From Pirellula sp. SH-Sr6A (GTDB lineage: Bacteria > Planctomycetota > Planctomycetia > Pirellulales > Pirellulaceae), in assembly GCF_001610875.1 (NCBI RefSeq), contig NZ_CP011272.1:6057988-6121987 (forward strand): DNA of 64,000 bases, in the 5' to 3' direction. Both the position numbers and the translations under genes were made by a program. Shown here piece by piece: positions 787 to 20,845 of the stretch (positions are counted from its first letter, which is position 1; each line of letters opens with the position of its first letter). The notes under the pieces are model-generated. The model worked only from the letters and a program-made list of their open reading frames with translations, searched no databases and was not told the DNA's origin.

Positions 787-790
787 ACAA

Positions 791-829
791 GTTGGCTGCA
801 AACCAACCCGAGCGCGAAAGCGTTCACCA
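791..829 (+). ncRNA. tRNA-Cys-like half (anticodon arm, T-arm, ACCA)
   Basis: A perfect 5-bp anticodon stem (GTTGG/CCAAC) carries the canonical loop CTGCAAA, giving anticodon GCA. Two bases later a T-arm-like hairpin (GAGCG/CGTTC, 6-nt loop) is followed directly by ACCA at 826-829. There is no D-arm or acceptor stem upstream, because the preceding tRNA-like unit ends only 5 bases before. It looks like a half-tRNA or the 3' part of a chimera. Confidence 0.35.
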
Positions 830-1200
830 AGTAGCTGGCGGGCAACAGTTGTTTTAATTGATCCGCCTGGTTGAACAGAGAAACCCGATAGGAACACCGA
901 CACTCTAACGAGTGAACTAACTCCGAATCGGACGACTCTGTTCCAAACAGGCAACAGACTAGCAAGCTTTGCAGATGAACTGCAAGCTGTTGATAAGTGC
1001 GATTCAATCGAGAGTATGTGAAATGGATGCGAAAGCAACCGTTGCCTCAAAGCCTCGAAAGCAATCCCATAGCTCAGCAGACAGAGTTCTTCTCCGCGTT
1101 GTCAAACTGCGATCAGTGAACAATCTGTTGCCTTAAGGCGTCTCTAGAATCCATCTGAAATCAAAGTAAGTCACTCGCATCGTGAAAGGTGGCGATCCCA

Positions 1201-2304: not shown

Positions 2305-2309
2305 AACCA

Positions 2310-2345
2310 AACGCCCCAGTATCTATTTGTACTGGGGCGTTTTTG
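2310..2345 (+). terminator. Rho-independent terminator after slipin
   Basis: A perfect stem of about 12 bp (AACGCCCCAGTA with TACTGGGGCGTT) around a short loop is followed by a T-run at 2340-2344. It begins five bases after the slipin stop codon and so ends that transcript. Confidence 0.9.
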
Positions 2346-2499
2346 ATTTCAAGAAAACCGAGCTCAAGAGGTATGCTCCACCTGCGCAGGACAAAATGCT
2401 AGCCTCCGATGTTGGGCCATATGGAAAGCCGTCCGCCTTGCAAGTGGGATATGGTAGAATGCTTCTTTTTCAAAAGGGACAACATCTTGTGAGATCGTC

Positions 2500-3219
2500 A
2501 TGTTCTCTTTCATTGTTATGAGCCTGCTCGTTATGCAAGTAGAAGTATCTGAACCAGCTAAACTCGATCTATGGAACACATTTGTCACAGCGCACCAAGT
2601 TCACGATCAAAGTGTTCCCTTGTTCGCAATGCAAGACGGTAATGTGGTTGTCATGAACTATGGATCAAACAAACGCAAAGTACTGAAGCGATCAGACGAA
2701 ATGGAACAGCGTCTCCGCAAGCTCGGTACTCAGTTGATCGCTGAACACAAAGAGGGTAAGTCCGTTCATGATGGCATTCTCTACATGATGCTGGCTCGCG
2801 AGGGCGAAACCCTCGTCCCGCTCTACATCGGAAAGGCGGAGACTTTCGGCAAGGGCGATCGCAATCTATCTGCGAACATTAGAGACTTGGCAAACGGAAC
2901 CGCCATGTTCGGACGATGGGGATACAACTATGCTTACCACATAGGGGACCTCAGCGCAGTCACTCTTTCTGGCCATCCAGACACGAAGGCATCGATCAAG
3001 TACAAAGCATGGCGAGACAAACTGTTTTCTGTCGAGAATGATGTGGTCAAGCCAAAGACTGAATTGCTGTTTTGGGCGAAGCTTTGGGGGCCCGAATGCC
3101 AGAGTATCTGGAAAGAGTATGGCACTACAAGACTCGCATTTGAAGAGTATCTAGTGATTGGTGTCGCCAGTGATGTCTTTCCGCAGCATTTGCTGAACAG
3201 GGAAGGCAGAACCCGGTAA
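2500..3219 (+). CDS. GIY-YIG-like nuclease-domain protein
   Basis: This is a 239-residue protein. The segment LVPLYIGKAETFGKGDRN (about residues 107-124) resembles the second half of a GIY-YIG motif (YIGKAE plus a basic glycine-rich turn), and the C-terminal EEYLVIGVASDVFPQHLLN is typical of unclassified GIY-YIG proteins. No DNA-binding domain is recognised. The first 11 residues are hydrophobic and the gene may instead start at the Met near 2533; no strong ribosome site decides this. It converges on the helicase gene, whose stop codon is 31 bases away. Such a pairing could be a nuclease-helicase defence pair, but the opposite orientations argue against one operon. Confidence 0.6.
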   Translation: MFSFIVMSLLVMQVEVSEPAKLDLWNTFVTAHQVHDQSVPLFAMQDGNVVVMNYGSNKRKVLKRSDEMEQRLRKLGTQLIAEHKEGKSVHDGILYMMLAREGETLVPLYIGKAETFGKGDRNLSANIRDLANGTAMFGRWGYNYAYHIGDLSAVTLSGHPDTKASIKYKAWRDKLFSVENDVVKPKTELLFWAKLWGPECQSIWKEYGTTRLAFEEYLVIGVASDVFPQHLLNREGRTR

Positions 3220-3249
3220 TCCAGCAAACGGTCGCTAGTGGCAAGGACT

Positions 3250-5025
3250 TCAGATGGTGGACGGCTCTTTAGTCGCAATGCGATTCAAAGCTGTTTGAAA
3301 CTTCTTCATCGCAACGAGACCGTCGTATTCGGTAGGAAGGGCGTCGAGCAAACTCTCGGACGCGAAGATGACCACTTTGGCTCTGGCTCGACTTACTGCG
3401 ACGTTCAGGCGATTCGGCGAGAAGATGAACGATGCCGTTTCAGATGCATATTCTGGATCTGTGGTGCACATTGAGATTGTGACCAATTCAACTGTAAGGC
3501 CTTGCACGCGTTCAACCGTGTCAACGATGGGAACATCGACAGCGGAGCCGACCTCATACTGGATCAATCGTCGAATCGCTGCTGCTTGTCGCCGATACGG
3601 TGTCACAACAGCTAGCTGATCGCTTGGTAGTCCCGACTTGATCGCCGTCGAAACTAGCTTTGCCACGGCATCCGCTTCAGCGAGATTCAGTTGTTGCGAT
3701 CCGTTGTCTTCAGATCGAATCCAGACCAACGATTCCTTGCTCTCTAACACAGCGAGGACCGGGAATTCCGTTGTGGAATTTGGACCCACAGGTAACGCCA
3801 GTCGGCGATGGCGCGATGAAGCCGCCGAAATAACCTTGCCAACTCCCCCATAGAAACTATCGGCGATGAAATTACAGATCGGCTCGTTCAATCGGTAGGA
3901 TGTGTTCAACATTAGAATCGAGCTAGGATGCGACTGTCTTAGTTTCTCGAAAAGTGAAGTGGCCAATGGACTGGAACTCACCTCTGAATTGAAGACAGGC
4001 GGCATCTGCTGATCATCGCCAAATAGCAGTGTGCTGCCAGCGCCGAAAAGCCCAGCACATATTCCTTGGCAAAACGGCAACTGTCCGGCTTCGTCGATCA
4101 AAACGACGTTTGGCGCAAGCCCGCTAGATTGCACGGCAAGGTGCTGGAGCGCTGACAGGAACGTCATACCGATGATTTGCTCACTACCAGTTCTACTGCT
4201 GTCTTGGCGGACAGCGTCTTTCAATAGAAGGCACTCGATGTCATCAGGCAGCGACTCTCTTCGCAATGCGTTACCAACCTTGACCAACTTTCGTTTCGGG
4301 AATGACGATCGGATGGCCGATAGGGCATTGTTCACCGCCTGGTGTGTAGGCGCGAGGATCAGCACTCTTCGGCCTAACCGAGAGAGTGCCTCTGCCACCA
4401 TGGCCAACAGATTGGTCTTACCGGTTCCTGGCGGGCCTTGGATTCCCAGAATAGAAGGTTCGTTGACGCACGCTTCGAGTGCACACCTCTGTGAAGCATC
4501 AACACCGAAGGGGAACTCCGAAACGACTTTCTCAACCACCATCTGGCGTTCATTCGCGTTCGTAATCTTTTTCACCAGCGGTGTCGCGCCGTCCTCTGTT
4601 AGCCACCGAAAGAATGACCACCCCGCCTGCCCAGGTTGCAACTTCTTAATCGATTGAACGATAAGTGGTGTAAAATCGCGATCGAGTTCGACCAATGTCC
4701 AGGGCCCTGCGAAAACATCCTCTGGCACCCGAGAAAGTGTGATGCGCAACACTCGCCCCGCTTCTTCAACATCAGTCACTTCACCAGTGAGGCGTCCATG
4801 TTCCGATGCACTAAGCACAACATGGCTACCCGGCCGGATGCGTGATTCATTATGCTTACATTCAAGGGTCACAGGTGATTTCTCGGTCCGAGTCACCATG
4901 AGTCCCGTGATCGCACGGCCAAGATGACTCATTGCATCATCCGACAACAGTTTATAGATCTTCTGTTGCTTCTCGTTTTCCCGTTGCTCCGCAAGCACGA
5001 ACTCGATTAGTTGATCTGGCGTCAT
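3250..5025 (-). CDS. SF1 (Upf1/DNA2-like) helicase
   Basis: This 591-residue protein has the full superfamily-1B motif set: Walker A GPPGTGKT (about residues 197-204), motif Ia LILAPTHQAVN, Walker B LIDEAGQL, motif III FGDDQQMPP, motif IV VVTPYRRQA, motif V DTVERVQGLTVEL and motif VI LNVAVSRARAK. The first 130 residues include a beta-rich region like the 1B/stalk barrel of Upf1-type enzymes. It should unwind DNA or RNA using ATP. There is no fused nuclease domain. The start lies 28 bases from the divergent LssY_C fragment. Lone helicases of this type occur in defence islands and in housekeeping roles; nothing here decides which. Confidence 0.85.
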   Translation of the reverse strand: MTPDQLIEFVLAEQRENEKQQKIYKLLSDDAMSHLGRAITGLMVTRTEKSPVTLECKHNESRIRPGSHVVLSASEHGRLTGEVTDVEEAGRVLRITLSRVPEDVFAGPWTLVELDRDFTPLIVQSIKKLQPGQAGWSFFRWLTEDGATPLVKKITNANERQMVVEKVVSEFPFGVDASQRCALEACVNEPSILGIQGPPGTGKTNLLAMVAEALSRLGRRVLILAPTHQAVNNALSAIRSSFPKRKLVKVGNALRRESLPDDIECLLLKDAVRQDSSRTGSEQIIGMTFLSALQHLAVQSSGLAPNVVLIDEAGQLPFCQGICAGLFGAGSTLLFGDDQQMPPVFNSEVSSSPLATSLFEKLRQSHPSSILMLNTSYRLNEPICNFIADSFYGGVGKVISAASSRHRRLALPVGPNSTTEFPVLAVLESKESLVWIRSEDNGSQQLNLAEADAVAKLVSTAIKSGLPSDQLAVVTPYRRQAAAIRRLIQYEVGSAVDVPIVDTVERVQGLTVELVTISMCTTDPEYASETASFIFSPNRLNVAVSRARAKVVIFASESLLDALPTEYDGLVAMKKFQTALNRIATKEPSTI

Positions 5026-5822: not shown

Positions 5823-6287
5823 ATGATGATCGACTACATGGATCGTCCTCCACCGGCCCCTGACCTGATCAAAATCACCGACATCTTTTTGGTTCCCAGC
5901 AGTTTTCTAGTCGCCGCCCTTGGTACGGCTAATACAAACCTCCATCGAGCTGTGGTTTCCGTAGTCGGGTTGCTCCTCAATGTCCTGTGGTGGTTCTCGC
6001 ATCGAATCGCCGACGTACAGTTACGCATCGAGGGTGCGGAAAGGAGTCTTGCCAACGTCAATCGCGAGCTCGCGGATTGGGAGAAGCGGGAGCTTTTCAT
6101 TCAAGAGATCGACGAGGCACTCATCGACTTCGATCGGATCTGGGAACCTCTCACGACTCGGGAAAAAGCACGGCTCCTTGCTTTGGTTGTTCCGAAAGTC
6201 GAGTTCGACCATAGCGATAGTACCATCGTCATCTCGTGTCACGACAGCTGCGTCGAGTCGCTTGAGCAACAACCTATGGAGGTCTAA
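5823..6287 (+). pseudogene. Chimera: membrane fragment joined to serine-recombinase C-terminus
   Basis: The first about 60 residues hold hydrophobic segments ending in VVGLLLNVLWWFS, as in small membrane proteins. From about residue 60 the sequence switches to the C-terminal tail of a large serine recombinase: coiled coil, FDRIWEPLTTREKARLLALV, then a beta strand IVISCH. The resolvase catalytic domain and the zinc region are absent. The stop codon is directly followed by the ATG of the next gene, with GGAGG before it, which preserves the native recombinase/accessory junction. I read this as the scar of a recombinase-borne element that lost its left part. Confidence 0.6.
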
Positions 6288-6713
6288 ATGGTAACTATCA
6301 AACAGAAACTCAGCATCAACATCGCAGAGCATGGTCGAATTCAGATCCGATCCATTGATCCGAACAAAGCGAAACGAAGAGAAAGACCATCAGGCCGAGT
6401 CCCTCGCATTTCCCGGCTGATGGCCCTTGCGATCCATTTCGATGAGATGCTTCGAACGGGAGAAGTATCTGACAAGGTCGAGTTAGCTGACCGCGAGCAA
6501 GTCACTCTGCCACGTATGAACCAAATCATGGCCCTCAACCAGCTGGCACCCGACATTCAAGAGCAGCTACTGTTCTTGCCACGCGTCACCGAAGGCAAAC
6601 CGGAGATCTCTGAGAAGAATCTCCGCGGAATAACCATGCTTGACGACTGGGACGAGCAGAGAAGAGCGTCGGAAATCATGAGGTCGTGTAGCCAATCCAA
6701 AACAAGTTATTGA
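6288..6713 (+). CDS. Small recombinase-associated protein (HTH-like)
   Basis: This 141-residue protein has a basic N-terminus (KRRERPSGRVPRISRL), a helical core of about residues 45-80 reading like a helix-turn-helix (ADREQVTLPRMNQIMALNQL) and a conserved tail (LAPDIQEQLLFLPRVTEG). It resembles the middle of ParB/KorB-type helices. It follows a recombinase tail with a good ribosome site and no gap. Three broken relatives lie at 8408-8744, 9107-9255 and 20693-20845. The function is unknown; DNA binding in partnership with a recombinase is a guess from context. Confidence 0.7.
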   Translation: MVTIKQKLSINIAEHGRIQIRSIDPNKAKRRERPSGRVPRISRLMALAIHFDEMLRTGEVSDKVELADREQVTLPRMNQIMALNQLAPDIQEQLLFLPRVTEGKPEISEKNLRGITMLDDWDEQRRASEIMRSCSQSKTSY

Positions 6714-6959
6714 CTCCGACGCTCCGGCGTGCCAAACCGGTGCGAGTTGGCGGTCAAAGTGAAATCCTCGGCTTGGGGTAGCGTTTCCAGAACACGTTTC
6801 AGTGAATCGGAAACTAAAAAGTGCGAGTGGCTAGGGCAGGACCGTTCGTCCTGAGGGTGTACAACGCCGAGAGCTTTTGCCTCTAGGTTTGCCAAATCAA
6901 CTGGCCCAAAAAACGAAGGCCGTTATGGATGTTGGCAACTAGAAGCATACCAGACCATG

Positions 6960-7808
6960 TTACGCCAAGGCGTTCTCAAATAGAACAAGCAGGCGCGCCC
7001 AAGCTTTTTCGGACAGCTCTTGGTTGTAAACTTTGGTGTCTGGAGGACACCATCCATGGCCTGCTTTGTAGACCTCAATCTCCGCAGGCAAGTTGGCTTG
7101 AGCGAAAGAGTCCGTCAGCACATTCTTTGTCTCTGGTTCTTTTTGGTCATCGTTTTCGGCAATGCAAATCAGAAACCGCGCTTTCATCTTGGGTATCAAC
7201 AGATGAGGACTATCGGGTCTTTGGGTGACGAGTCCACCGCCGTGAAACGTGCCGCCAGCGCCGATGCGTTCGGGAACTGCCGCTGCGGTTCGCATCACAA
7301 TTGGACCACCCATGCAATATCCGATCGTGCCGATCTTCTTCTTCGTATCGGTTTGCGGCTGAGCGTCGAGCCACGCCACTAACGCTTTGGCATCATCGAT
7401 ATGCGTCTTCTCGCTCAATGTACGCGCTAGTGGAAAAACATCTTGAATTGGTGTGCTGCTTGCATCCTGTGCTACTGGCGCTTTCTTGGATCGGTAAAAT
7501 GGATTGACTACCAGCACGCTGTAACCACATTCTGCAAGCCGCTTGCCCATCTGTCTGAACGCAGGGCGCAAGCCGAAGATATCTGGCCAAACAGTTACTG
7601 CAGCATGTGCGCCGTTTTTGGGCGTAACGAAGTACGCATCACAAACACCATCCGGCGTCTTGATGTCGACTTCATTCTCAGCGACTTCTACTGCGTGTGC
7701 CGTACTTGGGAATAACAAGGCGGCACCAATGCCAGCTGAAACCATCACGCCTAAATCCCTGCGTGAGTACTTCTTTGCATCTTCGTCAAAATGATCTTGA
7801 TCGCACAT
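6960..7808 (-). CDS. Dienelactone hydrolase family protein, exported
   Basis: This is a 282-residue alpha/beta hydrolase. The nucleophile motif is GYCMGG (Cys as in dienelactone hydrolase), an acidic residue follows in AENDD, and the His sits in AGHGWCPP. The N-terminus holds SRRDLGVM followed by a hydrophobic stretch and AHA, which looks like a Tat signal with cleavage near residue 40. It would hydrolyse an ester or lactone outside the cytoplasm; the natural substrate is not predictable. It stands alone among degraded sequences. Confidence 0.85.
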   Translation of the reverse strand: MCDQDHFDEDAKKYSRRDLGVMVSAGIGAALLFPSTAHAVEVAENEVDIKTPDGVCDAYFVTPKNGAHAAVTVWPDIFGLRPAFRQMGKRLAECGYSVLVVNPFYRSKKAPVAQDASSTPIQDVFPLARTLSEKTHIDDAKALVAWLDAQPQTDTKKKIGTIGYCMGGPIVMRTAAAVPERIGAGGTFHGGGLVTQRPDSPHLLIPKMKARFLICIAENDDQKEPETKNVLTDSFAQANLPAEIEVYKAGHGWCPPDTKVYNQELSEKAWARLLVLFENALA

Positions 7809-8407
7809 ATGTCACTGCCATTTAAGTTGAAGCTAAAGTCCCCTGAATCCAGTCGATAGACGAATCCGAAATTAGAGCTTGACGCTACTCGGGAATAAAT
7901 GGGGGCAGTTCTCTTTTTTCGACCTTCCTGATTGTTGGACTGCGGTGTGGGAGATGACCGGGGCACGAAAACACTTCCTCGTAGATTGGCGGCCTTACGA
8001 CCAAATCTGCATTGGCATAGCTAGTTCAGGAGGGCGTGTCCTGTGCGTTCTGTCCGGTCGCTTAACGCGCTCCGGTCACACAAACCGGTCGATTACTTAG
8101 AATTTCCTCCGGCAACATGGGCACCCGCCGTCATGACCCTTGATCAACGGTAAAAATGCTGTCGGATGCGGAAGCGTGGTTATAGCTCGGAACGCCAGCG
8201 GATCGCGCTCCGCGTAAGGGCGGCACGTGATACCATCCGACGCTATAGGACATTTCGGAAAGTGCGTTCGAGAACTCGGCAAGCCATGGAGCGGCTGCCG
8301 GTCCCATCGATTTCACAACCCCTGTTTCCTAACGTATCACGGGGGGATCGTCTCATGGAAAGCCAAAAGGAAAGTTAGCTAGCTCACGCTGCCGGCATGG
8401 AGGTCTA
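7809..8407 (+). other. No gene seen; decayed sequence before recombinase-linked copy 2
   Basis: Short open frames occur on both strands but show no family motif. Just before 8408 the string ATGGAGGTCTA matches the recombinase-gene end seen before 6288, so the last bases are probably recombinase remnant. Nothing else is recognised. Confidence 0.5.
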
Positions 8408-8744
8408 GATGATCACTATCAAATAGAAACAGAGCCTCCACATCGCAGCGCATGGCCGGATTCAGATCCGATCCATTGATCCGAACAAAGCGAAACGAAG
8501 AGAGAGACCATCAGGCCGAGTCGCTCGCATTTCCAGGCTGATGGCTGTTGCGATCCATTTCGATAAGATGCTTCGAACGGGAGAAGTATCCGACATGGTC
8601 GAGCTAGCTGACCGCGAGCAAGTCACTAAGCCGCGGATGAGCCAAACCATGGTCCTCAACCAACTGGCACCGGACATCCAAGAATCTCTAATAAATCTGC
8701 CGGCCACTAAAGGCAAACCCGATAGACGCGGAATGCGGAGTTAG
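8408..8744 (+). pseudogene. Recombinase-associated small gene, decayed copy 2
   Basis: The nucleotide sequence is highly similar to 6288-6600 (for example the identical stretch from about 8461 to 8500), including the upstream ribosome site GGAGGTCTA. The sixth codon is TAG. After the LAPDIQE block the sequence diverges and ends in GKPDRRGMRS, about 30 residues early. The 3' end abuts a choloylglycine-hydrolase fragment, so this copy marks the edge of an inserted element. Confidence 0.8.
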
Positions 8745-8886
8745 CTTTTTCCGTCCAGTCCTGAGTCCGACCGACAAACACTTGGTCGTCTCCTGCGACA
8801 CATATCACTCGCGTACAAGCCAACGCGATTGGGGCGGAAAACATTCCGACAAGACCGACCATGAAAGCCACGAAACTTCGACGCAT
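8707..8886 (-). pseudogene. N-terminal fragment of a choloylglycine hydrolase-type Ntn hydrolase
   Basis: A signal peptide (MRRSFVAFMVGLVGMFSA) ends before ALACTRVICV, where the Cys would be the N-terminal nucleophile after cleavage. VFVGRTQDWTE is the expected next conserved block of linear-amide C-N hydrolases. The reading breaks at about NSAFRV, where the recombinase-linked copy begins on the other strand. Full-length members have about 330 residues; only some 55 remain. Confidence 0.65.
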
Positions 8887-9106
8887 GAACACTGCTCCAG
8901 ATAAGAATTTTTCGTTCTACGATTCAACTGGTCTGCAATTGAAGCGGAAAAGCATTCTGCCACGGCATTTCGAACAGCGAACTCGACTGCGATCGTATCT
9001 TACCATCAAACTCATCTTGGTTAGGTTGATGACCTTACTCTATCCGTGCCGGTGAATCTCCCCGCAGCGACCCAGTCTCGGGCACATGTATACTTGCCCA
9101 GAAGTC

Positions 9107-9255
9107 CAGCCACGAATGAGCCAAATCATGGTTTTTATTCAGCTTGCACCGGACCTTCAAGAGCAGCTACTGTTCTTCTCCCGCATCACGGAAGGCAAAC
9201 AAGAGATCTCCGAAATGACTCTCCGCTCGATAGCCGATTACCATCAGCGCCGGAT
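9107..9255 (+). pseudogene. Recombinase-associated small gene, fragment copy 3
   Basis: The sequence reads PRMSQIMVFIQLAPDLQEQ and then LLFFSRITEGKQEISE, matching the C-terminal half of the 6288-6713 protein. The N-terminal half and any start are missing. Homology fades at about 9255. It lies 220 bases before the first integron cassette. Confidence 0.7.
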
Positions 9256-9513
9256 AATTCGAGATACTGTACGGCGAGCCGCCACCACACATCCGCACCC
9301 GCTGGGGATGTCCTTAGAACGCCTTCAGGCCATTTCGGGTCGGAAATCCCAAGAAAAGACGCAGATTACCTTCTAGAGGGTGAGCGCAAATCAGGAGGGC
9401 AGGCAGCCCATTCGACCTGTTTGGTGGGCTACAATGCGACTTTTGTTTTCCGGCGCGGGCGCCGGAGAATTACTAGTTATCGCAGAAGCGAGTGCACACC
9501 TCAGAGGGACACA

Positions 9514-9912
9514 TTGACTCCTGAACAGCAAATTCGGTGGGGATACGCCGGTGTGATCGTAACGCTCGCGGTGATAGCAAGCCTATCCACATCAGGATCA
9601 ATGAGTCCGGTGGCGATGCTCATGTTTGCATCAATGGCGATGCTCAACGATGCGAACATCGAGCAGGCGACTGACACACTCTTTTATTCGCGAAATCGTT
9701 GGTTGATGCTAATTATTTGTATGGGAGTTTCGATCTCCCCTGCGTTACTTGTTGGCGATGCTATCGTGAGAACAGAAAATTCCAATTTCCCGCTTTGGAT
9801 ACGTTGGGTGTTGGCCTCGGCGATCGCGATACTGACTGTTGGTTGTGCTATACTTGGTACGATACGATCAACTACTTCAATCAGCGTCAACCAAGCACAT
9901 GACAAGCGATAA
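9514..9912 (+). CDS. Cassette 1: small membrane protein
   Basis: This protein of about 132 residues has four likely membrane helices (YAGVIVTLAVIASL, VAMLMFASMAML, WLMLIICMGVSISPALL, VLASAIAILTVGCAIL). No family is recognised. The likely start is TTG at 9514, just after AGAGGGA; upstream in-frame sequence is outside the cassette or unlikely to be coding. The stop codon lies inside the attC R'' box, as is common for cassette genes. Membrane proteins are frequent among integron cassettes. Confidence 0.65.
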   Translation: MTPEQQIRWGYAGVIVTLAVIASLSTSGSMSPVAMLMFASMAMLNDANIEQATDTLFYSRNRWLMLIICMGVSISPALLVGDAIVRTENSNFPLWIRWVLASAIAILTVGCAILGTIRSTTSISVNQAHDKR

Positions 9913-9998
9913 CAATCCTATGCACCTAAGCCCCCGCCGGTGCTTTACTGACTTTCGAGACATCTCTTGCGGGGGCTAGGTGATGGGTTGCGTTCGTC
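9907..9998 (+). repeat. attC site 1
   Basis: R'' CGATAAC (9907-9913) and R' GTTCGTC (9992-9998) enclose a near-palindrome whose arms CACCTAAGCCCCCGC and GCGGGGGCTAGGTG pair with one unpaired A, the kind of extrahelical base that orients attC recombination. The site is 92 bp and strongly similar to attC site 3. Confidence 0.9.
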
Positions 9999-10015
9999 GA
10001 AAGAAGATCGCTAGA

Positions 10016-10399
10016 GTGAAGGCTCGCTTCTCGCTAAGAACTCTGATCGCGACGCCCGCCTGCATCGCGATTTTACTTGCTTCATACACTTGGTTCTCGC
10101 CGGGTGTTACCGTGACGGTACGAAATAGAGGTTTTTCAACACTCGTTGATCTGAAGGTACATGTAACCGGCAGGTCCTGCGAACTCGGTGACATTGCTAG
10201 CGGTTCAATAAGAGAATGCAAAACAAACCCAACGAGTGAATCACACGTGGAGATTTCATACCAGCTAACTGACGGAACGACCAAGCGCCACACAGTTGAT
10301 TGCTACTTCGAATCGGGCTACCGCGGTGCGGTCGAAGTCGAAATACAAGACGGAGAGCTAATCCACTCGTCGCATCAAATTCAATTCTCGTTTTTGTGA
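10016..10399 (+). CDS. Cassette 2: membrane-anchored hypothetical protein
   Basis: A basic N-terminus (MKARFSLRTLI) leads into one membrane helix and then about 95 residues rich in beta propensity (VTVTVRNRGFSTLVDLKV). The FSLRTLI motif before a helix is common in planctomycete proteins of unknown role. GTG at 10016 is chosen because AAAGAAG lies just upstream and the longer frame from 9980 would run through the attC site. There is no functional prediction. Confidence 0.65.
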   Translation: MKARFSLRTLIATPACIAILLASYTWFSPGVTVTVRNRGFSTLVDLKVHVTGRSCELGDIASGSIRECKTNPTSESHVEISYQLTDGTTKRHTVDCYFESGYRGAVEVEIQDGELIHSSHQIQFSFL

Positions 10400-10425
10400 C
10401 ATGTGGCTTGCTCTGGGGTACAATC

Positions 10426-10516
10426 GACGAACAAAGGATTACAGCAAAGCGCTCGATCAGCCGCACCGGCTTGCTTTAAGTGTACTGCTCGCACTTGCTG
10501 AATCCAGTCGTTCGTC
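10426..10516 (+). repeat. attC site 2
   Basis: R'' GACGAAC (10426-10432) and R' GTTCGTC (10510-10516) are exact reverse complements. Inner arms GGATTACAGCAA and TTGCTGAATCC pair except for one extra A, the expected extrahelical base. Total 91 bp. Confidence 0.92.
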
Positions 10517-10552
10517 CAATTTAATGCAGTTCCTCGCCATAGTTATTTGCAT

Positions 10553-10990
10553 ATGCGATTCTCCCTGTTTTCGCTGCTTCTTCTGACCACAGTGGTCGGA
10601 GTTGCATTGGCGACAACAATAACAGCAGCCATCCAGGACAACGGACGGATGATTCTCGACGTCACGAAATTCATCGTGGTTTTTCTCTCGGCGGCCGCAT
10701 TGACAACCGGCATTCTATCGTCGGGTAGGATTCAAGTGTTTTGCCTTACTTGGGGGATCTTCGTCGTTACGCAGGACTTGTGTCATTCTACTCCTCTTGT
10801 TGTGAAAGAGTTGGTGGAGAATGCGTTAATCCCGCCACAAGAATCGTCTGAACGCGTGACGCTTGCCACAACATATGTATTCGAGATCACTGGAGTCTGG
10901 TTTGATATTCGCGTTGCGACCATCGCCGCATGCGTAGCCGTTATGCTCTCAACTTCGAAGCGGCTTGAAAATTATGACATCCAACGTTAA
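10553..10990 (+). CDS. Cassette 3: membrane protein
   Basis: This 145-residue protein begins MRFSLFSLLLLTTVVGVALA, a variant of the planctomycete RFSLRTLL membrane motif, and has two further hydrophobic segments plus a C-terminal helix (VATIAACVAVML). No known domain was recognised. ATG at 10553 lies 36 bases inside the cassette; no clear ribosome site is visible, as in many cassette genes. Confidence 0.65.
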   Translation: MRFSLFSLLLLTTVVGVALATTITAAIQDNGRMILDVTKFIVVFLSAAALTTGILSSGRIQVFCLTWGIFVVTQDLCHSTPLVVKELVENALIPPQESSERVTLATTYVFEITGVWFDIRVATIAACVAVMLSTSKRLENYDIQR

Positions 10991-11069
10991 AAGGAATTCG
11001 AGCAGAATGCAAATGACTAGATCGCTTAGGTTTGTACCATGGAGTTCGACACCGCTTTAGCATAAACAG

Positions 11070-11161
11070 GACGAACCGTCCCATGCACCTAAGCCCCCGC
11101 TGGTGCATTACTAGCTTAAGAGGCATCTCTTCCGGGGGCTAGGTGATGGGTGCCGTTACGC
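11070..11161 (+). repeat. attC site 3
   Basis: R'' GACGAAC (11070-11076) and R' GTTACGC (11155-11161), 92 bp. Inner arms CACCTAAGCCCCCGC and CCGGGGGCTAGGTG pair with one unpaired A. The body is nearly identical to attC site 1, so the two cassettes share an attC lineage. Confidence 0.9.
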
Positions 11162-11167
11162 CAGGAG

Positions 11168-11602
11168 ATGCGATTGACAGAACCGTCAACTATCAAACTT
11201 GCGTCCGGACGTGAGATCGCGATTGGGCGAATCTATCAGTCCAGAGCTTACGAGGGACTGATCGAAGGCTTGCCAACACGAGAGCGCAATGCGAGACGGA
11301 TTCCATACTTCTGCAACAAAGCCCAGAATCTGTGGAAACTCAAGGTTCACTTGATCGAACCGTCGGAGACCCCAATCGAGTACGATGGGAAGTATCCTTT
11401 TGGTACACCCGCGATGCTCCCTGGTACGGTCTGCTTTGGTCGATTCTCATCCTTGCAACCAGCGCGTGACAAGAACATGGATGGATCTGAATTGACCATC
11501 GTGTGGTTCCAAAGCGACTTTGCTTTTCCCATTGATGCCCCTGTCCTCAATGCAATTCGAAAGCTGGATTGGGAAGCGATCGCTGTGGACTACCAGTACT
11601 AA
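11168..11602 (+). CDS. Cassette 4: soluble hypothetical protein
   Basis: This is an approximately 144-residue soluble protein. It has a compact N-terminal block (LASGREIAIGRIYQSRAYEGL), a middle HLIEPSETPIEY and an acidic end LDWEAIAVDYQY. I have the impression of a widespread small family of unknown function with the same SxxYxGLLEG and FQ..FAPPID pattern, but cannot name it. AGGAG at 11163-11167 would best serve a TTG start at 11174; the ATG at 11168 is the alternative. Confidence 0.65.
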   Translation: MRLTEPSTIKLASGREIAIGRIYQSRAYEGLIEGLPTRERNARRIPYFCNKAQNLWKLKVHLIEPSETPIEYDGKYPFGTPAMLPGTVCFGRFSSLQPARDKNMDGSELTIVWFQSDFAFPIDAPVLNAIRKLDWEAIAVDYQY

Positions 11603-11604
11603 AA

Positions 11605-11697
11605 GCGTAACAATGGCATGCACACGAAGCCCTCGATCAGCCGTTTTTGACTTGCGTAGAGTCAATCGCTCGGACTCAGTGACGCCGGTCGTTATTT
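11605..11697 (+). repeat. attC site 4
   Basis: R'' GCGTAAC (11605-11611) and R' GTTATTT (11691-11697), 93 bp. Inner arms AATGGCATGCAC and GTGACGCC pair imperfectly. The core (GCCCTCGATCAGCCG and GCGTAGAGTCAA) is shared with attC site 6. Confidence 0.85.
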
Positions 11698-11706
11698 GGC
11701 AAAGGC

Positions 11707-12243
11707 ATGACAGCGAATCTCAAACCTCGAACGATACCACACTTCGTCGTATCGGCAGCCGTAGCCGTCTGCTTACTTGGCTGCGGTACCACCACGTCAC
11801 CACCTGAATCGACTGTAGAATGGATCGACCCAAACAAGATCCAGCAAGGCCCAACACTACACGACACATTACCGGCTGAATTGCTGACTCGAATCAAAGC
11901 GGTCCATGAAACATTTGCTGACGTCGATGGAACACCGCTTGAAAAGTGGATTGACGACTTCAAGCGTGACCTCGACCCGGAAGGTAACATCCGCGTATGG
12001 GAAGACATGCAGGTTGCTTACAATTCATACTGCAACCAACGCGAACTGCCACTTGAGACACGAAGAGAGGTCTTCAGGATCGTCCTGATGCGATCAATGA
12101 TGCCCGACAAGGACGTGCTCGCCCGACTTGAATTAGAGCATGTCCCTGCTGATGACGTGCCCATTATCCTTGCTGCATATCCAGGTGATGCGAAACCGAT
12201 CGACGTGATTCAAACTGATCAGATACCCCCAAAAGCCAAATAA
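11707..12243 (+). CDS. Cassette 5: predicted lipoprotein
   Basis: A 178-residue protein with a signal ending in the lipobox VCLLGC (about residue 26), so it should be lipid-anchored. The mature part is hydrophilic, helical and acidic, with no recognised domain. ATG at 11707 lies ten bases after the attC R' box. Its TAA stop overlaps the next R'' box. Confidence 0.75.
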   Translation: MTANLKPRTIPHFVVSAAVAVCLLGCGTTTSPPESTVEWIDPNKIQQGPTLHDTLPAELLTRIKAVHETFADVDGTPLEKWIDDFKRDLDPEGNIRVWEDMQVAYNSYCNQRELPLETRREVFRIVLMRSMMPDKDVLARLELEHVPADDVPIILAAYPGDAKPIDVIQTDQIPPKAK

Positions 12244-12326
12244 CAAAACATTGTACCGAAGCCGCCGACGGTGCGCTGTGGGATGGTGATTCTTGTTCGG
12301 CGGCTCGGGGAATGTTGGCGTTCCGT
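12238..12326 (+). repeat. attC site 5
   Basis: R'' AAATAAC (12238-12244) and R' GTTCCGT (12320-12326), 89 bp. Inner arms CATTGTACCGAAGCCGCCGA and TCGGCGGCTCGG...AATG pair well, with short bulges. It is the most GC-rich of the set. Confidence 0.85.
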
Positions 12327-12380
12327 TGTGAAACCCTCAAGCAGTACGGTCCAGGACGAAGAATTAGTGCCGACACATCA

Positions 12381-12740
12381 ATGAACGATATCATTGCCAA
12401 AACATCCTTCGACTGCATCGACCAAAAGGGCAACGCCTTCGTGACAACAGTGGAAATTGGCGTCCCAAAACCGTTCGAATCAAAAAGCGGATCGATAGAC
12501 TACAGTTGCTCTGTAGCCGTATTGCCTCTTAACGTGTACCGAGAAATGGGAGCGTGTGGAACTGATTCCTTGATGGCATTGAGTTTAGCAATAGAGAATA
12601 CGCGTCAGATACTGAGAGCGTTTGTGCAATTGGGGGGGCGGGTTTACTACTCCGGAACCAAAACCCCAATCGATATCGATAGCCCGACGTTTCAACCAGT
12701 CGCAGAGCACCTTGTAAATCCGCAGTTCCGCGTCCAGTGA
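12381..12740 (+). CDS. Cassette 6: hypothetical protein, DUF6968-like
   Basis: This is a 119-residue soluble protein. The pattern FVTTVEIGVPKP, then SIDYSCSVAV, then DSLMALSLAIENTRQIL and a Gly-rich end resembles small DUF6968-type proteins (beta strands followed by one long helix); the match is from memory and moderate. ATG at 12381 is chosen because the longer frame from 12312 overlaps the attC. Function unknown. Confidence 0.55.
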   Translation: MNDIIAKTSFDCIDQKGNAFVTTVEIGVPKPFESKSGSIDYSCSVAVLPLNVYREMGACGTDSLMALSLAIENTRQILRAFVQLGGRVYYSGTKTPIDIDSPTFQPVAEHLVNPQFRVQ

Positions 12741-12772
12741 ACTATACAATCGTCATTGAAATCGAAAACACA

Positions 12773-12864
12773 ACAGAACAAATGGTTGCAGACGAAGCCC
12801 TCGATAAGCCGTTTCGACTTGCGTAGAGTCAACTGCTCGGGCTCACTGAACCCAGCCGTTCGCC
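12773..12864 (+). repeat. attC site 6
   Basis: R'' ACAGAAC (12773-12779) and R' GTTCGCC (12858-12864), 92 bp. Inner arms TGGTTGCAG and CTGAACCCA pair with an extra base. The body shares GAAGCCCTCGAT and GCGTAGAGTCAA with attC site 4. Confidence 0.9.
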
Positions 12865-12879
12865 CATCGAGGAAGCCTT

Positions 12880-13596
12880 TTGGCAGTGCATGAATCAATG
12901 CGGTTGATACTGTTTTCCGGACTTGCCGCCGACGCCAATGTCTTCGTTTCGCAGAAACTCACCTTTCCGCAATTAATCGTTCCCGCATGGCCGAAACCTC
13001 GATCAAATGATACGCTAGACTCGTACTGTGAACGACTTGCGGACATCATTCGACCGGACGTTGGCACACTCATCGGAGGTGCTTCGTTCGGTGGCATCAT
13101 TGCGATACATGTCGCGCAATACTTTAGGCCCGCAGCATTGATTTTGATTGGTAGTCTTCGATCGCCTTCCGAACTGCCTCGTTGGATACGGTTTTGCCGT
13201 CCACTGAAACCGTTGATTCCGCTGATTCCGGTTCGACTGCTTCAAATTCTCTGTGCTCCGATTGCATCGCAACTTGCTCGACAATGGTGCCCACACCATT
13301 GCGGTCTAGCTCGTCAATTCCGCAGCGCCGATCCAGCGGTGTTTATATGGTCGCTTGCCCGAATTCTTGACTGGAATGTTGCTCCTGTGTTGGATTGCCC
13401 AGTGTTTCACATTCACGGTGATCGTGACCTCGTTCTGCCAATACGATATACTAATGCCGATACGAAGATTGCTGGTGGCGGCCACGTGATTTCGCTGACA
13501 CATCCACGAGAGGTCAACGACTTCATCCGTTCCGCTATCACCCAAGTATCGGGCGAACAATTGGAAGCACCAAAGTCGCCGAACGGTGCGTTTTGA
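12880..13596 (+). CDS. Cassette 7: alpha/beta hydrolase
   Basis: This is a 220-240-residue alpha/beta hydrolase. The nucleophile elbow is GGASFGG, the acid probably lies in HGDRDLVLP and the His in GGGHVISLTHP. It is the only cassette product with an evident enzyme fold; the substrate is unknown. Possible starts are TTG 12880 (after GAGGAAG) and ATG 12898 (MRLILFSG); the fold begins at the latter. The last 13 or so residues are encoded inside attC site 7, so the C-terminus depends on the cassette junction. Confidence 0.8.
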   Translation: MAVHESMRLILFSGLAADANVFVSQKLTFPQLIVPAWPKPRSNDTLDSYCERLADIIRPDVGTLIGGASFGGIIAIHVAQYFRPAALILIGSLRSPSELPRWIRFCRPLKPLIPLIPVRLLQILCAPIASQLARQWCPHHCGLARQFRSADPAVFIWSLARILDWNVAPVLDCPVFHIHGDRDLVLPIRYTNADTKIAGGGHVISLTHPREVNDFIRSAITQVSGEQLEAPKSPNGAF

Positions 13597-13642
13597 CAAT
13601 GGAGCGATCACTCCGTCGACTTGGTGATCCGTCGCGTTACCC
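13552..13642 (+). repeat. attC site 7
   Basis: R'' GGCGAAC (13552-13558) and R' GTTACCC (13636-13642), 91 bp. Inner arms CACCAAAGTCG and CGACTTGGTG pair with one unpaired A. It overlaps the 3' end of the hydrolase gene. Confidence 0.9.
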
Positions 13643-13652
13643 GAATGAGGCC

Positions 13653-13864
13653 ATGTTGATCCGACCCCTTGTTCTCATTGGCTTGGTTGTGATGCTAGCT
13701 ACGACCGGATGCAATCGCACGGACCGGCGTCTCGCATTCAGTGCTCACTCTAAGTCTGCGATTCCGAAAACTGCAACCTTGATTCATAGCGGTGCTCAAT
13801 ACGCTGGATTTGATGCAAGTTACGGATTCGTATTTGACGTAACAGATGGTGCAGTTGTGGACCA
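13653..13864 (+). pseudogene. Cassette 8: lipoprotein gene cut by insertion sequence
   Basis: From ATG 13653 the frame gives a lipoprotein signal (LIRPLVLIGLVVMLATTGC) and about 50 further residues up to FDVTDGAVVDQ, where the terminal repeat of the ISKra4-like element begins. The expected R'' box (GGGTAAC) was not found beyond the element, so the rest of the cassette appears deleted rather than merely displaced. Confidence 0.65.
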
Positions 13865-15682
13865 ACGGGTGCATTTGCTTTTATGGCACTTTTGCGGTGT
13901 GGTAATCATTGAGATTTCTGAGTTCTTTGACGCGCATCGGATTTCGGTCTTGGCGACTCGTCAAGTTTTGGGAGTGCTTGCTTTCGGTTCCGCTTCATTT
14001 CGTACTTGACCACCGCTCGGTCATCATCCCATCTGCCACTCAGTATCGATGATCGGATCGTAAGTATCTTCTCTGCCTTTTGAATTCGCCAAAACGTTCC
14101 GCTGTTCTTCATCCGAAGATTGATCACTCGACGTATCGCACTCTCAATCGATCCACTTCCAAGTGGGAGTCCCATCAGCTTGAACTTCGGATAGTCCAGG
14201 CGTCCTGCCTCCCCGTGGCTACGAATGTATTCGATGACTCGTTTGATTTCTGATCGATCGGCAGAGGATAGATCCTCGGCCTGACTTAGCCGAGCAGTGA
14301 GCACTTCGACAACCTGCGACCATTGACCATCTCGCAATCGACTTCGCAGTTCATTGGAATTCGATGGTTCACTTTCCCCAGCAGCATTCAAAGAACGATC
14401 CAAGGGCTGGAGGGCTTTGCCTAGGTTCTCTACGGCGTGGCACACGTCAAGCACTTGATTGACAACCACTGCGGATTCCACCTTCGCTTTAGCAAGTATC
14501 GAATCGATCCGTCCCCAGATCCAAGTCGCACCGTCGCTATTGAACGTAATCGTCTTTGCTTTATTGGCTCCCAAGCGATGGAGGTGCATGCTGATTAGTC
14601 GTTCCATATAGTCTGCGTCACCGAATGAGCCATCGATCAGAACTCGAACCGCTTCGTCTCTTCGTCCATTGTCATCGTGCGCGTAGATGATTAGCAGTTT
14701 TGGTTCTCGCCAATCGGCCTGAAAACGACTGGATCTACGCGTTTCCTTGGAGCGTCCCGCACTTAGCTCGCCTGTGACTTGCGATTGGGTTTTTCCAAAG
14801 TTTTCCACAGGATCGATCCATTCCAGGACGCCGCGTGTTCTCGTCCGGCCACCGTCAATTTGCACCGATACTCGCCTTCCAGTGAATTCGCAACCTTGCT
14901 TCATATCGCCGCGCTCAAATTGCTCCAGCATTCGTTCCCGGACGGTTAGGGATTCCGATCCTGCGCGAGAGACGATACGGTCGATCGTTGTTCGCGTTAA
15001 CTGAATACCGTCTCGTTGCAATTCGACGTATGCTTGATCAAGCGATGGGGCCAACGCCACTGTCCGACACACTTTCGATACAAGCCAAGGAGAAACGTTC
15101 TCTGAAAAGCCATACTGGCTTAGATCGATATCGAGTCCCGGCGTATGATCTTCGCGACTTGCGGCTGGAGATTTCGGTTGACAGTAGAGGGTAGCTGCGT
15201 AGCTGATATGGCCAGCGCCGAGATGGACTTCGACTTGTCGTTCATGTCCAGCTCGCAGCGGTATTGCGTATCCCAATCGTGTTTCCTCGCAACGCTTATC
15301 GTGCTCCTTGGAATTCATGGAATTGGCAATCATCCCAGTAAGACACAGCCCCGCTCCGAGGTCGAACAATTCTTTGACCTGCTGTTCGACGAACTCCATT
15401 TGCATGGGGTCATTGTTGAGAATCACTTGTAGCTGGGCAATTTTTTGATACGCCTCGGCAAGAAACATCCCCATTGTTTGATTGGGATTATTGACTTCAG
15501 GTCCTACGCGGTCGAACACATTCCACCTTCGCATGATCGCCTCCATGTCGTTGGGAAGAAACCCCAATCATCACAGCACGGTAAGCGGTAGTGATCATTA
15601 TAATGCGAAAGCCGTCGCAACACTGTTTGCTAGCATCAGACCAGGCGTGCTAGCTTTAAACCATAAACGCAAATGCACCCGT
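13865..15682. mobile_element. ISKra4-like insertion sequence
   Basis: Terminal inverted repeats of 22 bp at 13865-13886 and 15661-15682 match at 21 positions (ACGGGTGCATTTGC...TATGG). They enclose one transposase gene on the minus strand. No obvious target-site duplication flanks the ends. It lies inside integron cassette 8. Confidence 0.85.
13906..15567 (-). CDS. Transposase, ISKra4-like
   Basis: A 553-residue DDE-type transposase. Likely catalytic blocks are VQIDGGRTRTRG, ITFNSDGATWIWG and LGSGSIESAIRRVINLRMKNSGTFW near the C-terminus, the last being the helix with the terminal acidic residue. A basic tail (KRNRKQALPK) follows. The frame is intact, so the element may be active. Starts at 15567 or the Met eight codons later are both possible. 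Confidence 0.85.
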   Translation of the reverse strand: MGFLPNDMEAIMRRWNVFDRVGPEVNNPNQTMGMFLAEAYQKIAQLQVILNNDPMQMEFVEQQVKELFDLGAGLCLTGMIANSMNSKEHDKRCEETRLGYAIPLRAGHERQVEVHLGAGHISYAATLYCQPKSPAASREDHTPGLDIDLSQYGFSENVSPWLVSKVCRTVALAPSLDQAYVELQRDGIQLTRTTIDRIVSRAGSESLTVRERMLEQFERGDMKQGCEFTGRRVSVQIDGGRTRTRGVLEWIDPVENFGKTQSQVTGELSAGRSKETRRSSRFQADWREPKLLIIYAHDDNGRRDEAVRVLIDGSFGDADYMERLISMHLHRLGANKAKTITFNSDGATWIWGRIDSILAKAKVESAVVVNQVLDVCHAVENLGKALQPLDRSLNAAGESEPSNSNELRSRLRDGQWSQVVEVLTARLSQAEDLSSADRSEIKRVIEYIRSHGEAGRLDYPKFKLMGLPLGSGSIESAIRRVINLRMKNSGTFWRIQKAEKILTIRSSILSGRWDDDRAVVKYEMKRNRKQALPKLDESPRPKSDARQRTQKSQ

Positions 15683-16091
15683 AGCCAACTGCTGACAACA
15701 GAAGATCAATCGCCAGTTACAATGGATCAGGACCTGATAGAGGCGTCAAGAATTCAACAATTATTATCACATCCCCTGTTCGCCGATCCAAGACGAGGGC
15801 GACGACATTCCACTCCAATGTAGTCCATGGAAAAACGCACGAATTCGAGTGACTGGTGCGATATCCTAAGAGCGCTTTCACCGTTGGCAACAAGGCGTGC
15901 TTGGGTCAAACGCGATCGACTAAAGTTTGAGGACGGCTATGAAGCGCCGTGAAGATCGTTTACGGGATTAGAAAATAAAATCGAACACTCCCCCGATCGC
16001 TGGCGCGCATTGAGCAGTACCGATTGGGAACATCCTGCAAACTACTGCTACGACTATCCTGGGATCCTACCTATGCGACGAGGCGGTCACT
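15683..16091 (+). other. No gene seen between two insertion sequences
   Basis: About 410 bases between the two elements carry only short frames without recognisable motifs. No attC site or R'' box was found here, although the remainder of cassette 8 might be expected. Confidence 0.5.
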
Positions 16092-19862: not shown

Positions 19863-20408
19863 TTGGTATCACTGCTTCGGAACGAATACTGACGTTTGGA
19901 AACTTCGAACATTTAGCGGCGACTCTTTCCCACGCACACGGCACCCCACCAGCACGCTGGTCAGCTGGAGATCGAGCAGTCGTTCCTATCTAGTTTCGCT
20001 TCCAATTCCCTTTTCACTTTGTCTGGCGATAGTTATCCGATCTTCCCCTCTCGCCAAAGAACGAAATCGATTAAGCCCGCACACACCAGGAACCACAATC
20101 ATTTGGGGTAACTTTGTCGCGCCGAGTACAAAAGTAAAACAAAAGGCGAGTAAAGCCAGAGTGATATTCCCCCCGACGAGGCAAGTGTTGAAAAAGCTAT
20201 GTGGCACTACCATTTTCGATCGGTCATTCGGAGCCCTCCGAATCTGGTATGGACGGATCTGAAATATGCAGAACTCTGGCGATCCGCGAAGCCGAGGAGT
20301 TGGTTCAACACAAGTCAAATCGGCCGAACGTGGCCGTCTTCTGCATCGTTTTGTTCTGCCTATTCTTCCTGCTCGTGCTCGGAATCGCCTATTTGATTGT
20401 AGCAAAAT
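19863..20408. other. No clear gene; two possible membrane-helix fragments
   Basis: A plus-strand frame near 20330-20410 (VAVFCIVLFCLFFLLVLG) and a minus-strand frame near 20150 (LALLAFCFTFVLG) each contain one hydrophobic stretch, but neither has a convincing gene structure. Confidence 0.4.
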
Positions 20409-20692: not shown

Positions 20693-20845
20693 TCACTCTC
20701 CAAGTTCGAACAGGTATCTTTGTTCCGCCCAACCCTCGAGCTTAGTCATCGGTTGGAAAGTCTTTTTGGAGATCTCAAGCTTGCCTTCCTTGATGCCGGG
20801 AATGAACAGTAACTGCTCTTGAACGCCGGGGTTCGGCAACGTCAC
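20693..20845 (-). pseudogene. Recombinase-associated small gene, fragment copy 4
   Basis: On the minus strand, VTLPNPGVQEQLLFIPGIKE followed by GKLEISKKTF and LEGWAEQRYLFE match the last 50 residues of the 6288-6713 protein, with a small internal deletion. No start or N-terminal half remains. Confidence 0.65.

What the first reader, a model, noticed from the sequence alone, without database searches (positions are those of the whole stretch)
9476..13864. Integrase-less integron cassette array with eight cassettes
Seven attC sites (89-93 bp) separate short genes all in one direction. In six of seven complete cassettes the left-edge heptamer is the exact reverse complement of the same cassette's R'' box; the seventh has one mismatch. 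That relation arises only by excision and insertion of circular cassettes at attC, and it also predicts the boundary at 9476 where no attC precedes. Most products are membrane proteins, lipoproteins or unknowns.
Basis: partly seen in the sequence, partly recalled or inferred. Interest (0 to 1): 0.85.

Follow-up and report, generated by a model that had tools for sequence, protein, structure and literature searches.

The report
Integrase-less gene cassettes behind attI-like site
A planctomycete chromosome carries a row of small swappable genes of the integron kind but no recognisable integrase gene, and the row starts at a short repeated DNA site that also stands at the head of similar rows elsewhere in this and related genomes, which suggests that docking sites for such genes can spread without the enzyme that uses them.

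Summary
Window 9477-13636 holds seven complete gene cassettes, each ending in an 89-93 nt attC, plus an eighth cut at about 13864 by an ISKra4-like element. Left edge and R'' of the same cassette agree in 33 of 35 variable positions; only the true pairing of 5040 reaches this. The attC stems covary. A model from these sites finds seven more arrays and five lone sites in this 6.53-Mb single-contig genome and sites in 27 of 27 genus genomes, this one included. The heptamer rule holds in independent arrays. No IntI was found in the genome. This is a CALIN, a known kind and common in this family.
There are 97 copies in 11 of 27 genus genomes, seven of them here, and none found in 77 family genomes outside the genus or on 16 intI loci. 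What follows it are cassette left edges, and its last ten bases are AT-rich as in attI. Best reading: a dispersed, intI-free attI-like docking site.

The parts
9404..9478 (+). Array head: attI-like module (palindrome AGCCCATT..TGGGCT, TACAAT, palindrome CCGGCG-CGGG-CGCCGG, AGAATTACTA, then G|TT at 9476)
   Evidence: model matches at 6 other places of this genome and 97 in all in the genus; ends exactly at the predicted cassette left edge
9477..9992 (+). Cassette 1; ORF from TTG 9514 to 9912, membrane protein by eye, no family
   Evidence: left edge GTTATCGC and R'' GCGATAAC match 8/8
9907..9998 (+). attC1
9993..10510 (+). Cassette 2; ORF from GTG 10016 (frame open from 9980) to 10399, N-terminal hydrophobic segment by eye, no family
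   Evidence: heptamer match exact
10426..10516 (+). attC2
10511..11155 (+). Cassette 3; ORF 10547-10990, membrane protein by eye, no family
   Evidence: heptamer match exact
11070..11161 (+). attC3 (85% identical to attC1 over 84 nt)
11156..11691 (+). Cassette 4; ORF from ATG 11168 (frame open from 11150) to 11602, no family
   Evidence: heptamer exact, eighth base differs
11605..11697 (+). attC4
11692..12320 (+). Cassette 5; ORF 11707-12243, lipoprotein-like by eye, no family
   Evidence: heptamer match exact
12238..12326 (+). attC5 (R' GTTCCGTT at 12320)
12321..12858 (+). Cassette 6; ORF from ATG 12381 (frame open from 12312) to 12740, DUF6968-like just under the cut-off
   Evidence: one heptamer mismatch; Pfam 26.5 bits against cut-off 27
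12773..12864 (+). attC6
12859..13636 (+). Cassette 7; ORF 12880-13596, alpha/beta hydrolase
   Evidence: heptamer match exact; PF12697 27.5 bits against cut-off 26.3
13552..13642 (+). attC7
13637..13864 (+). Cassette 8, truncated; lipoprotein-like ORF from ATG 13653 (by eye); no attC found
   Evidence: left edge GTTACCCG at 13636; expected R'' CGGGTAAC absent from the window
13864..15683 (-). IS with ISKra4-like transposase (ORF 13906-15567) that cuts cassette 8
   Evidence: terminal inverted repeats at about 13864 and 15683; NF033572 136.2 bits, below its cut-off 205
20268..20359 (-). Lone attC-like site, opposite strand
   Evidence: 41.0 bits; own R'' and R' fully complementary
5994..6284 (+). 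Fragment resembling a large serine recombinase, upstream of the head (context only)
   Evidence: 84% identical over 97 aa to the fragment before the L039 head; family matches of that fragment are all below cut-offs
9107..9271 (+). Degenerate copy of the recombinase-linked ORF143 just before the head (others at 6288-6707, 8409-8723 and 20705-20830 -)

Best explanation
The array is a cluster of integron gene cassettes without an integrase (CALIN). Its cassettes were placed one by one, in one orientation, at the G|TT point of a conserved 75-nt attI-like site (9404-9478) by an integron integrase that this genome no longer encodes or that acted in trans. attC bottom-strand hairpins were the cassettes' recombination sites (shown here: structure, covariation, shifted complementarity; not shown: recombination). 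The head module is a dispersed attI-like docking site (inferred: conserved sequence, exact junction, AT-rich crossover flank, cassette edges behind it), copied to several loci without intI. The window array is among the best preserved; most other arrays of the genome are decaying, as expected once the integrase was lost.
For: Shifted complementarity 33/35, best of 5040 permutations; attC covariation; seven further arrays and five lone sites in the same genome, with the rule kept there (of 32 pairs 8 at 4/4 and 14 at 3/4; permuted mean 1.0 at 4/4; sum 82 against 45.2, 0 of 100,000) and in relatives. No IntI found: best matched stretch for TIGR02249 in the genome 79 bits, best whole protein checked 131.5 bits, against a cut-off of 265; the two best stretches belong to XerC and XerD. 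14 of 26 genus relatives do have IntI over the cut-off. Head: five copies with at most 2 mismatches here, 0 in the reversed control; 97 in 11 of 27 genus genomes, 11 of the 97 being the model's own training copies; none found in 77 non-genus family genomes. Of 70 heads read, 52 are followed by GTT, and 25 of these continue with one of the 15 commonest attC R' tetramers, 6% expected (mean log-ratio above all 10,000 draws). Last ten bases 74% AT in 70 heads, 87.5% in 8 intI-linked attI, 36-45% in attC, 48% background. Of nine heads tested, three have the exact 8-mer R'' at an attC downstream and two have it with one mismatch. A known attI can be orphaned in this genus: G010:C363 has an intI-type attI heading cassettes about 6.6 kb upstream of the intI, which has its own attI.
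Against: The head resembles none of the eight intI-linked attI read here, no R2 match lies on the 16 intI loci searched (of 21 intI places over the cut-off), and no contig in the lists has both. Palindrome covariation in the head is not above shuffles. R2 includes the GTT itself, so the bare presence of GTT is biased; only the bases after it are a fair test. Across head-to-head units the exact rule is weak: 7-mers 5 of 41 against 2.1 expected (65 of 1000 shuffles as high), 8-mers 3 of 41 against 0.5 (10 of 1000); p = 0.0007-0.004 when mismatches are allowed. Four of nine heads have no R'' at a recognised attC: L124 (contig ends after about 660 bp) and L126 no match, L128 only a far match that is no attC, L125 an exact 8-mer without an attC. 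Of the other own arrays that of L039 is as intact as the window's, so decay is not uniform. No recombination was shown.
Confidence: 0.66

Rival explanations
1. Plain CALIN: a former integron whose intI and true attI were deleted; the head is a genus repeat (MITE or REP-like element) that has no role in cassette capture and only happens to lie there. (The rivals overlap with one another and share the CALIN part with the best reading, so the odds do not add up to one.)
For: Loss of intI and rearrangement are accepted origins of CALINs (PMC8618304, passage; PMC9024848, passages). In relatives the long form of the module is a discrete element of about 150 nt with sharp ends (third palindrome present in 48 of 62 copies, 137-142 nt before the crossover in 37 of the 48), as a small transposon would be.
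Against: The sequence behind 52 head copies is strongly enriched for cassette left edges and conservation stops at the crossover G|TT.
Confidence: 0.25
2. The head is an attG-type secondary target inside a repetitive element: IntI in trans put cassettes into many copies because the repeat ends in a good G|TT context.
For: attG sites as genomic targets are described (PMC12901181, passages). Many loci and many copies fit a repetitive target.
Against: attG sites are said there to diverge strongly in sequence and structure from classical att sites, whereas the head is a conserved 75-nt module with an attI-like AT-rich flank.
Confidence: 0.15
3. The module is part of an unusual recombination site downstream of genes, as in delta-attI-type cassettes (ORF followed by a partial attI in place of attC); units run from module to module.
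For: In G020 the modules lie between genes in one direction, 14 in a 12.7-kb contig. Delta-attI-type cassettes are excisable by IntI1 (PMC12901181, abstract and passages).
Against: In this genome the window, L039, L040 and L042 heads start cassettes that end in R1-type attC, and no R1-type attC half was found before the window head. Remains of several attC types precede the module in relatives (by eye).
Confidence: 0.12
4. The repeats are ordinary dispersed palindromes, not attC.
For: None found beyond the low information of single sites.
Against: Shifted complementarity, covariation and the same rule in independent arrays.
Confidence: 0.01

Closest known systems
CALIN (cluster of attC sites lacking an integron-integrase; IntegronFinder class)
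   Same: two or more attC with genes between them in one orientation, no intI near; here none found in the whole genome
   Different: starts at a conserved module shared with other intI-less arrays of the same genome and genus
attI site of integrons
   Same: cassettes join at G|TT in one orientation; AT-rich sequence directly before the crossover; stands at the head of the array
   Different: no intI beside any copy seen, many copies per genome, two palindromes, no resemblance to the eight intI-linked attI read here
delta-attI-type gene cassettes (class 1 and 2 integrons, PMC12901181)
   Same: attI-derived sequence repeated inside an array next to a cassette edge
   Different: there a deletion of attI1 or attI2 replaces attC, mostly as 14-18 nt remnants (one type of 244 nt); here a 75-150 nt module, also at array starts
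attG sites (genomic targets for cassettes, as cited in PMC12901181)
   Same: would explain cassettes at many chromosomal loci by IntI in trans
   Different: described as divergent sequences; here one conserved module

Membership tests
CALIN | at least two attC sites in a cluster | tested here: met
   seven in 3.7 kb
CALIN | no integron integrase nearby or in the genome | tested here: met
   no match over cut-off in 6.53 Mb, single contig; of the tyrosine recombinases behind the 16 matched stretches four were classified: XerC, XerD and two below all cut-offs. The two best leave out profile positions of about 187-237
attC site | R''/L''/L'/R' imperfect palindrome with an extrahelical base and conserved structure | tested here: met
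   21-pair structure 89.8% paired, unpaired A at column 23, covariation above all 500 shuffles
attC site | R'' complementary to the left edge of the same cassette | tested here: met
   33 of 35 positions; other arrays
attC site | R box consensus GTTRRRY | tested here: not met
   0 of 7 window sites, 2 of 50 relatives' sites; GTT[AC] in 7 of 7 and 48 of 50. The consensus is recalled, and also printed in PMC12901181 within the delta-attI consensus. GTT itself is kept; I take this as a lineage variant, so 'works like attC' stands
attC site | recombination by IntI through the folded bottom strand | not testable with these tools
   needs an assay
attI site (head module) | cassettes join at its G|TT in one orientation | tested here: met
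   window, L039, L127 exact, L040, L042 one mismatch, four of nine without; for the flanks of 52 copies
attI site (head module) | lies next to intI | tested here: not met
   no head on any of 16 intI loci searched; no intI found in this genome
attI site (head module) | two inversely oriented IntI binding sites (L and R) | not testable with these tools
   planctomycete attI binding sites are not defined as far as I know (recalled)
Complete integron | intI plus attI plus cassettes | tested here: not met
   no intI found

The most novel reading that the evidence does not exclude
The head is a mobile or copied, integrase-free attI: a genus-specific 75-150 nt docking element that seeds cassette arrays at many chromosomal loci and, in one relative, stands before most genes of a long array, so that the usual integron (one intI, one attI, many attC) is turned round into many attI-like sites served by an integrase acting in trans, with each cassette kept first in line.
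Probability: 0.35. Interest if true: 0.8.

Novelty: new variant of a known kind. Interest (0 to 1): 0.6.

Why it matters
How CALINs arise and whether their cassettes still move is open; the named routes are off-target insertion, loss of intI and rearrangement (PMC8618304, passage), and cassettes in CALINs are said to be open to exogenous IntI in trans (PMC9668308, passage). A conserved docking module without integrase would be a further route and makes it testable: clone the module and ask whether an IntI loads it. If attI-like sites spread by themselves, cassettes can gain first-position places at many loci at once, and tools that look only for intI and attC would miss the platform.

Tried and rejected
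Rejected: dispersed ordinary palindromes; an attI of the intI-linked types at 9476 (no similarity by eye; no match in the pattern scan); head as an attC (two successive, not nested, palindromes); a standard promoter in the head (consensus scan finds none there, 4 in the region against 3.4 +/- 1.9 in shuffles); a large serine recombinase as the platform (fragments lie before the window and L039 heads, none found on the L040, L042 and L128 stretches). Led nowhere: Rfam (one tRNA); the pre-insertion locus in the nearest relative G026 (contig ends about 700 bp after the shared flank gene); relatives of the cassette proteins in fetched loci (only the window's own copies); PADLOC for seven products (nothing); the GTAAGGATGCC motif as a marker of R'' in head-to-head units. 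One search used a mistyped structure for the head and was redone. first placed the left edge of cassette 6 at 12325; the alignment moved it to 12320.

Dropped rows: one search used 51 of the 56 matches (two were the same sites seen in two overlapping loci, three were opposite-strand or partial). One search used 53 of the 55 matches (dropped: one opposite-strand shadow, one cut at a contig end) and, for the test, the 42 neighbouring pairs under 1500 nt. One search used 53 of the 60 matches (dropped: six under 17 bits and one of 22.5 bits on L161) plus the eight of L127; one search added nine heads, 70 in all of 97 or more. One search used 44 own attC sites (down to 23.1 bits) and 50 of relatives. 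One search used 7 window sites, the 25 other own sites at 30 bits or more and 50 relatives' sites at 30 bits or more. One search used 41 head-to-head units of 450-1300 nt. One search used eight of the nine intI-linked boundaries as I assigned them (L094 by similarity, L098 left out). Genome-wide model searches scored at most 150 (53-60) of about 290-3900 first-look candidates per genome, so counts are lower bounds and absences are not proof.
Full report
What was checked. The window lies at 6,057,988-6,121,987 of a genome held as one contig of 6,534,136 bases, listed as 100% complete. The genus is Pirellula-like: a contig of a genus relative has the length of a named record (G019:C148, 7824 bases, as JAJTEK010000156.1 'Pirellula sp.'), and the same attI motif sits at the same coordinate in L062 and L094. 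The organism of the window itself was not named by any tool.

The array. Seven sites of 89-93 nt have the order R''-L''-L'-R'. A 21-pair structure with an unpaired A at alignment column 23 is formed in 89.8% of cells; 24 cells change on both sides of a pair against 8.3 +/- 2.0 in shuffles (0 of 500), and sliding the partners destroys it. The left edge of each cassette and the R'' of the same cassette agree in 33 of 35 positions (4-8), while R'' and R' of the same attC agree in 11 of 35; of all 5040 pairings only the true one reaches 33. This is the mark of cassettes that were once circles. The R box is GTT followed by A or C (7 of 7), not GTTRRRY (0 of 7; relatives 48 of 50 and 2 of 50).

Cassette contents. 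Eight short genes, all +. Only cassette 7 has a Pfam match over its cut-off (alpha/beta hydrolase, 27.5 bits against 26.3); cassette 6 has DUF6968 at 26.5 against 27; the other six give none. NCBIfam finds nothing for the six products given, cassettes 1 and 3-7, and PADLOC nothing for cassettes 1-7. Membrane and lipoprotein character of cassettes 1, 2, 3, 5 and 8 is read by eye. Several frames stay open through the preceding attC, so the start codons given in 'parts' for cassettes 2, 4 and 6 are the first ones I see inside the cassette.

No integrase. Over the whole genome the best stretch for TIGR02249 has 79 bits (16 stretches at E <= 0.001); as whole proteins the three highest of the four checked have 131.5, 118.2 and 110.6 bits, against a cut-off of 265. 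The same search also rings in 14 of 14 control genomes below the cut-off. Four proteins were classified: XerC (354.6 bits, over its cut-off), XerD (350.9, over its cut-off) and two tyrosine recombinases below all cut-offs; the remaining loci, among them two further recombinases and copies of one element, were not classified one by one. XerC and XerD leave out profile positions of about 187-237 between their two matched pieces, which I recall as the IntI-specific region. Of 26 genus relatives 14 have IntI over the cut-off; of 60 genomes searched 17.

Other arrays. The model R1 gives 37 matches in the genome at E <= 0.1, seven of them its training sites. On fetched stretches 44 distinct sites reach 23 bits; grouped within 4.5 kb the sites form seven further arrays and five lone sites besides the window array. 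In these arrays, of 32 neighbouring pairs 8 agree fully at positions 4-7 and 14 in three of four (permuted mean 1.0 full), and the sum is 82 against 45.2 (0 of 100,000). They are decaying: AAC and GTT both intact in 17 of 25 sites at 30 bits or more, against 47 of 50 in relatives (Fisher p = 0.005) and 7 of 7 in the window; the two sites of L039 are intact too. The relatives' stretches were chosen because they bear intI (16 loci), plus one large array and one flank contig, so that comparison is not random. In relatives 32 of 42 pairs agree fully, 7 in three of four and 3 in one or none (permuted mean 4.2 full, maximum 13). All 27 genus genomes, this one included, have R1 sites at E <= 1e-4, and 59 of 80 family genomes at E <= 1e-5. 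A CALIN as such is therefore ordinary here.

The head. Looking for left boundaries of the other arrays showed one shared sequence directly before G|TT at four loci. With up to three mismatches allowed it occurs five times in the genome, all with at most two, and never in the reversed control; with up to two mismatches in 5 of 27 genus genomes. The 75-nt model R2, built from 11 copies, finds seven copies here and 97 in 11 of 27 genus genomes at E <= 1e-3, and none in the 77 non-genus genomes among 80 of the family at E <= 1e-4 with stricter filters. None lies on the 16 intI loci searched, of 21 intI places over the cut-off, and in the lists no contig has both. Of the seven own copies five are followed on the same strand within 0.9 kb by an attC of 32 bits or more, one by a weak site of 14.7 bits, and one by another head.

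What follows a head. Conservation stops at G|TT. R2 contains the GTT, so only later bases are a fair test: of 52 copies with GTT (of 70 read), 25 continue with one of the 15 commonest attC R' tetramers, 6% expected; the mean log-ratio is 0.68 against at most 0.15 in 10,000 draws. For nine heads tested the expected R'' was found exactly at an attC in three and with one mismatch in two; L124, whose contig ends after about 660 bp, and L126 gave none, L128 only a far match that is no attC, and L125 an exact 8-mer that starts no recognised attC. Nothing I could see in eight intI-linked attI aligns with the head, but the ten bases before the crossover are AT-rich in both (87.5% and 74%), unlike attC (36-45%) or background (48%). 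Palindromes in the head show no covariation beyond shuffles.

The long form. In G020, G023, G016 and G002 the module is about 150 nt with a third palindrome (48 of 62 copies; in 37 of the 48 it starts 137-142 nt before the crossover) and stands between genes, 14 times in 12.7 kb of G020:C198. Remains of attC of several types seem to precede it (by eye). The heptamer rule across such units is present but weak.

Mechanism. Shown: attC structure, the cassette relation, absence of a recognisable IntI, a conserved module exactly at the crossover. Inferred: the module is a docking site used by an IntI in trans or since lost. A precedent inside the genus is G010:C363, where an attI of the intI-linked type heads cassettes with no intI beside it, while the intI of the contig, about 6.6 kb away, has its own attI. 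Delta-attI-type cassettes (PMC12901181, abstract and passages seen) show that attI pieces inside arrays can be active. attG targets are known to me from the same paper's passages only.

Literature. Searches of the held library for Planctomycet with attC, Rhodopirellula with integron, CALIN, attG/attI, attC with group IIC introns and orphan attI (no paper with three of the four terms) showed no description of a dispersed intI-free attI-like module in the listings and passages I saw; passages only were seen of PMC9024848, PMC2426708, PMC9668308, PMC3108266 and PMC8618304. That is no proof that none is in print.

Noticed in passing
G020:C198 (L159), G020:C186 (L160), L161-L165: Arrays in which a ~150-nt three-palindrome module separates genes, 14 times in 12.7 kb on L159; looks like a second kind of cassette array.
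   Followed up: partly
L093, L094, L095 against L100-L104: Two integron layouts in one genus: intI in the same direction as the cassettes, with a shared attI sequence around TAGGCTGATCCG..ACAA|GTT behind it (L093-L095), and intI divergent from them (L100-L104).
   Followed up: partly
L014 378-2090, L017 970-2439: Open frames of 570 and 489 aa around IntI, with N-terminal (and in L014 C-terminal) extensions beyond the 315-position integrase profile; start codons not established.
   Followed up: no
L095 (G010:C363), position 4912 on the reverse strand: Orphan attI of the intI-linked type heading its own cassettes on a contig whose intI has another attI.
   Followed up: partly
window 20268-20359 (-): Lone attC whose own R'' and R' are fully complementary, about 350 nt after a remnant of the recombinase-linked ORF143; no cassette left edge found.
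   Followed up: partly
window 5994-9271, L039 5964-7205, L046 12163-13352: Serine-recombinase-like fragments with a linked 143-aa ORF near several cassette arrays; three copies of the ORF, two of them partial, before the window head.
   Followed up: partly
L125, about 8095 (G002:C51): An exact R'' is followed not by a recognised attC but by another palindromic sequence, perhaps a group II intron end (recalled resemblance only).
   Followed up: no
G002:C73 225000-244000 (L096): Long array with 25 attC in 16 kb; the heptamer rule is kept fully in most neighbouring pairs.
   Followed up: partly
window 539-609 and 719-780 (+): A tRNA-Trp by ARAGORN and a separate Rfam tRNA match at the start of the window; each tool reports only one of the two.
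   Followed up: no
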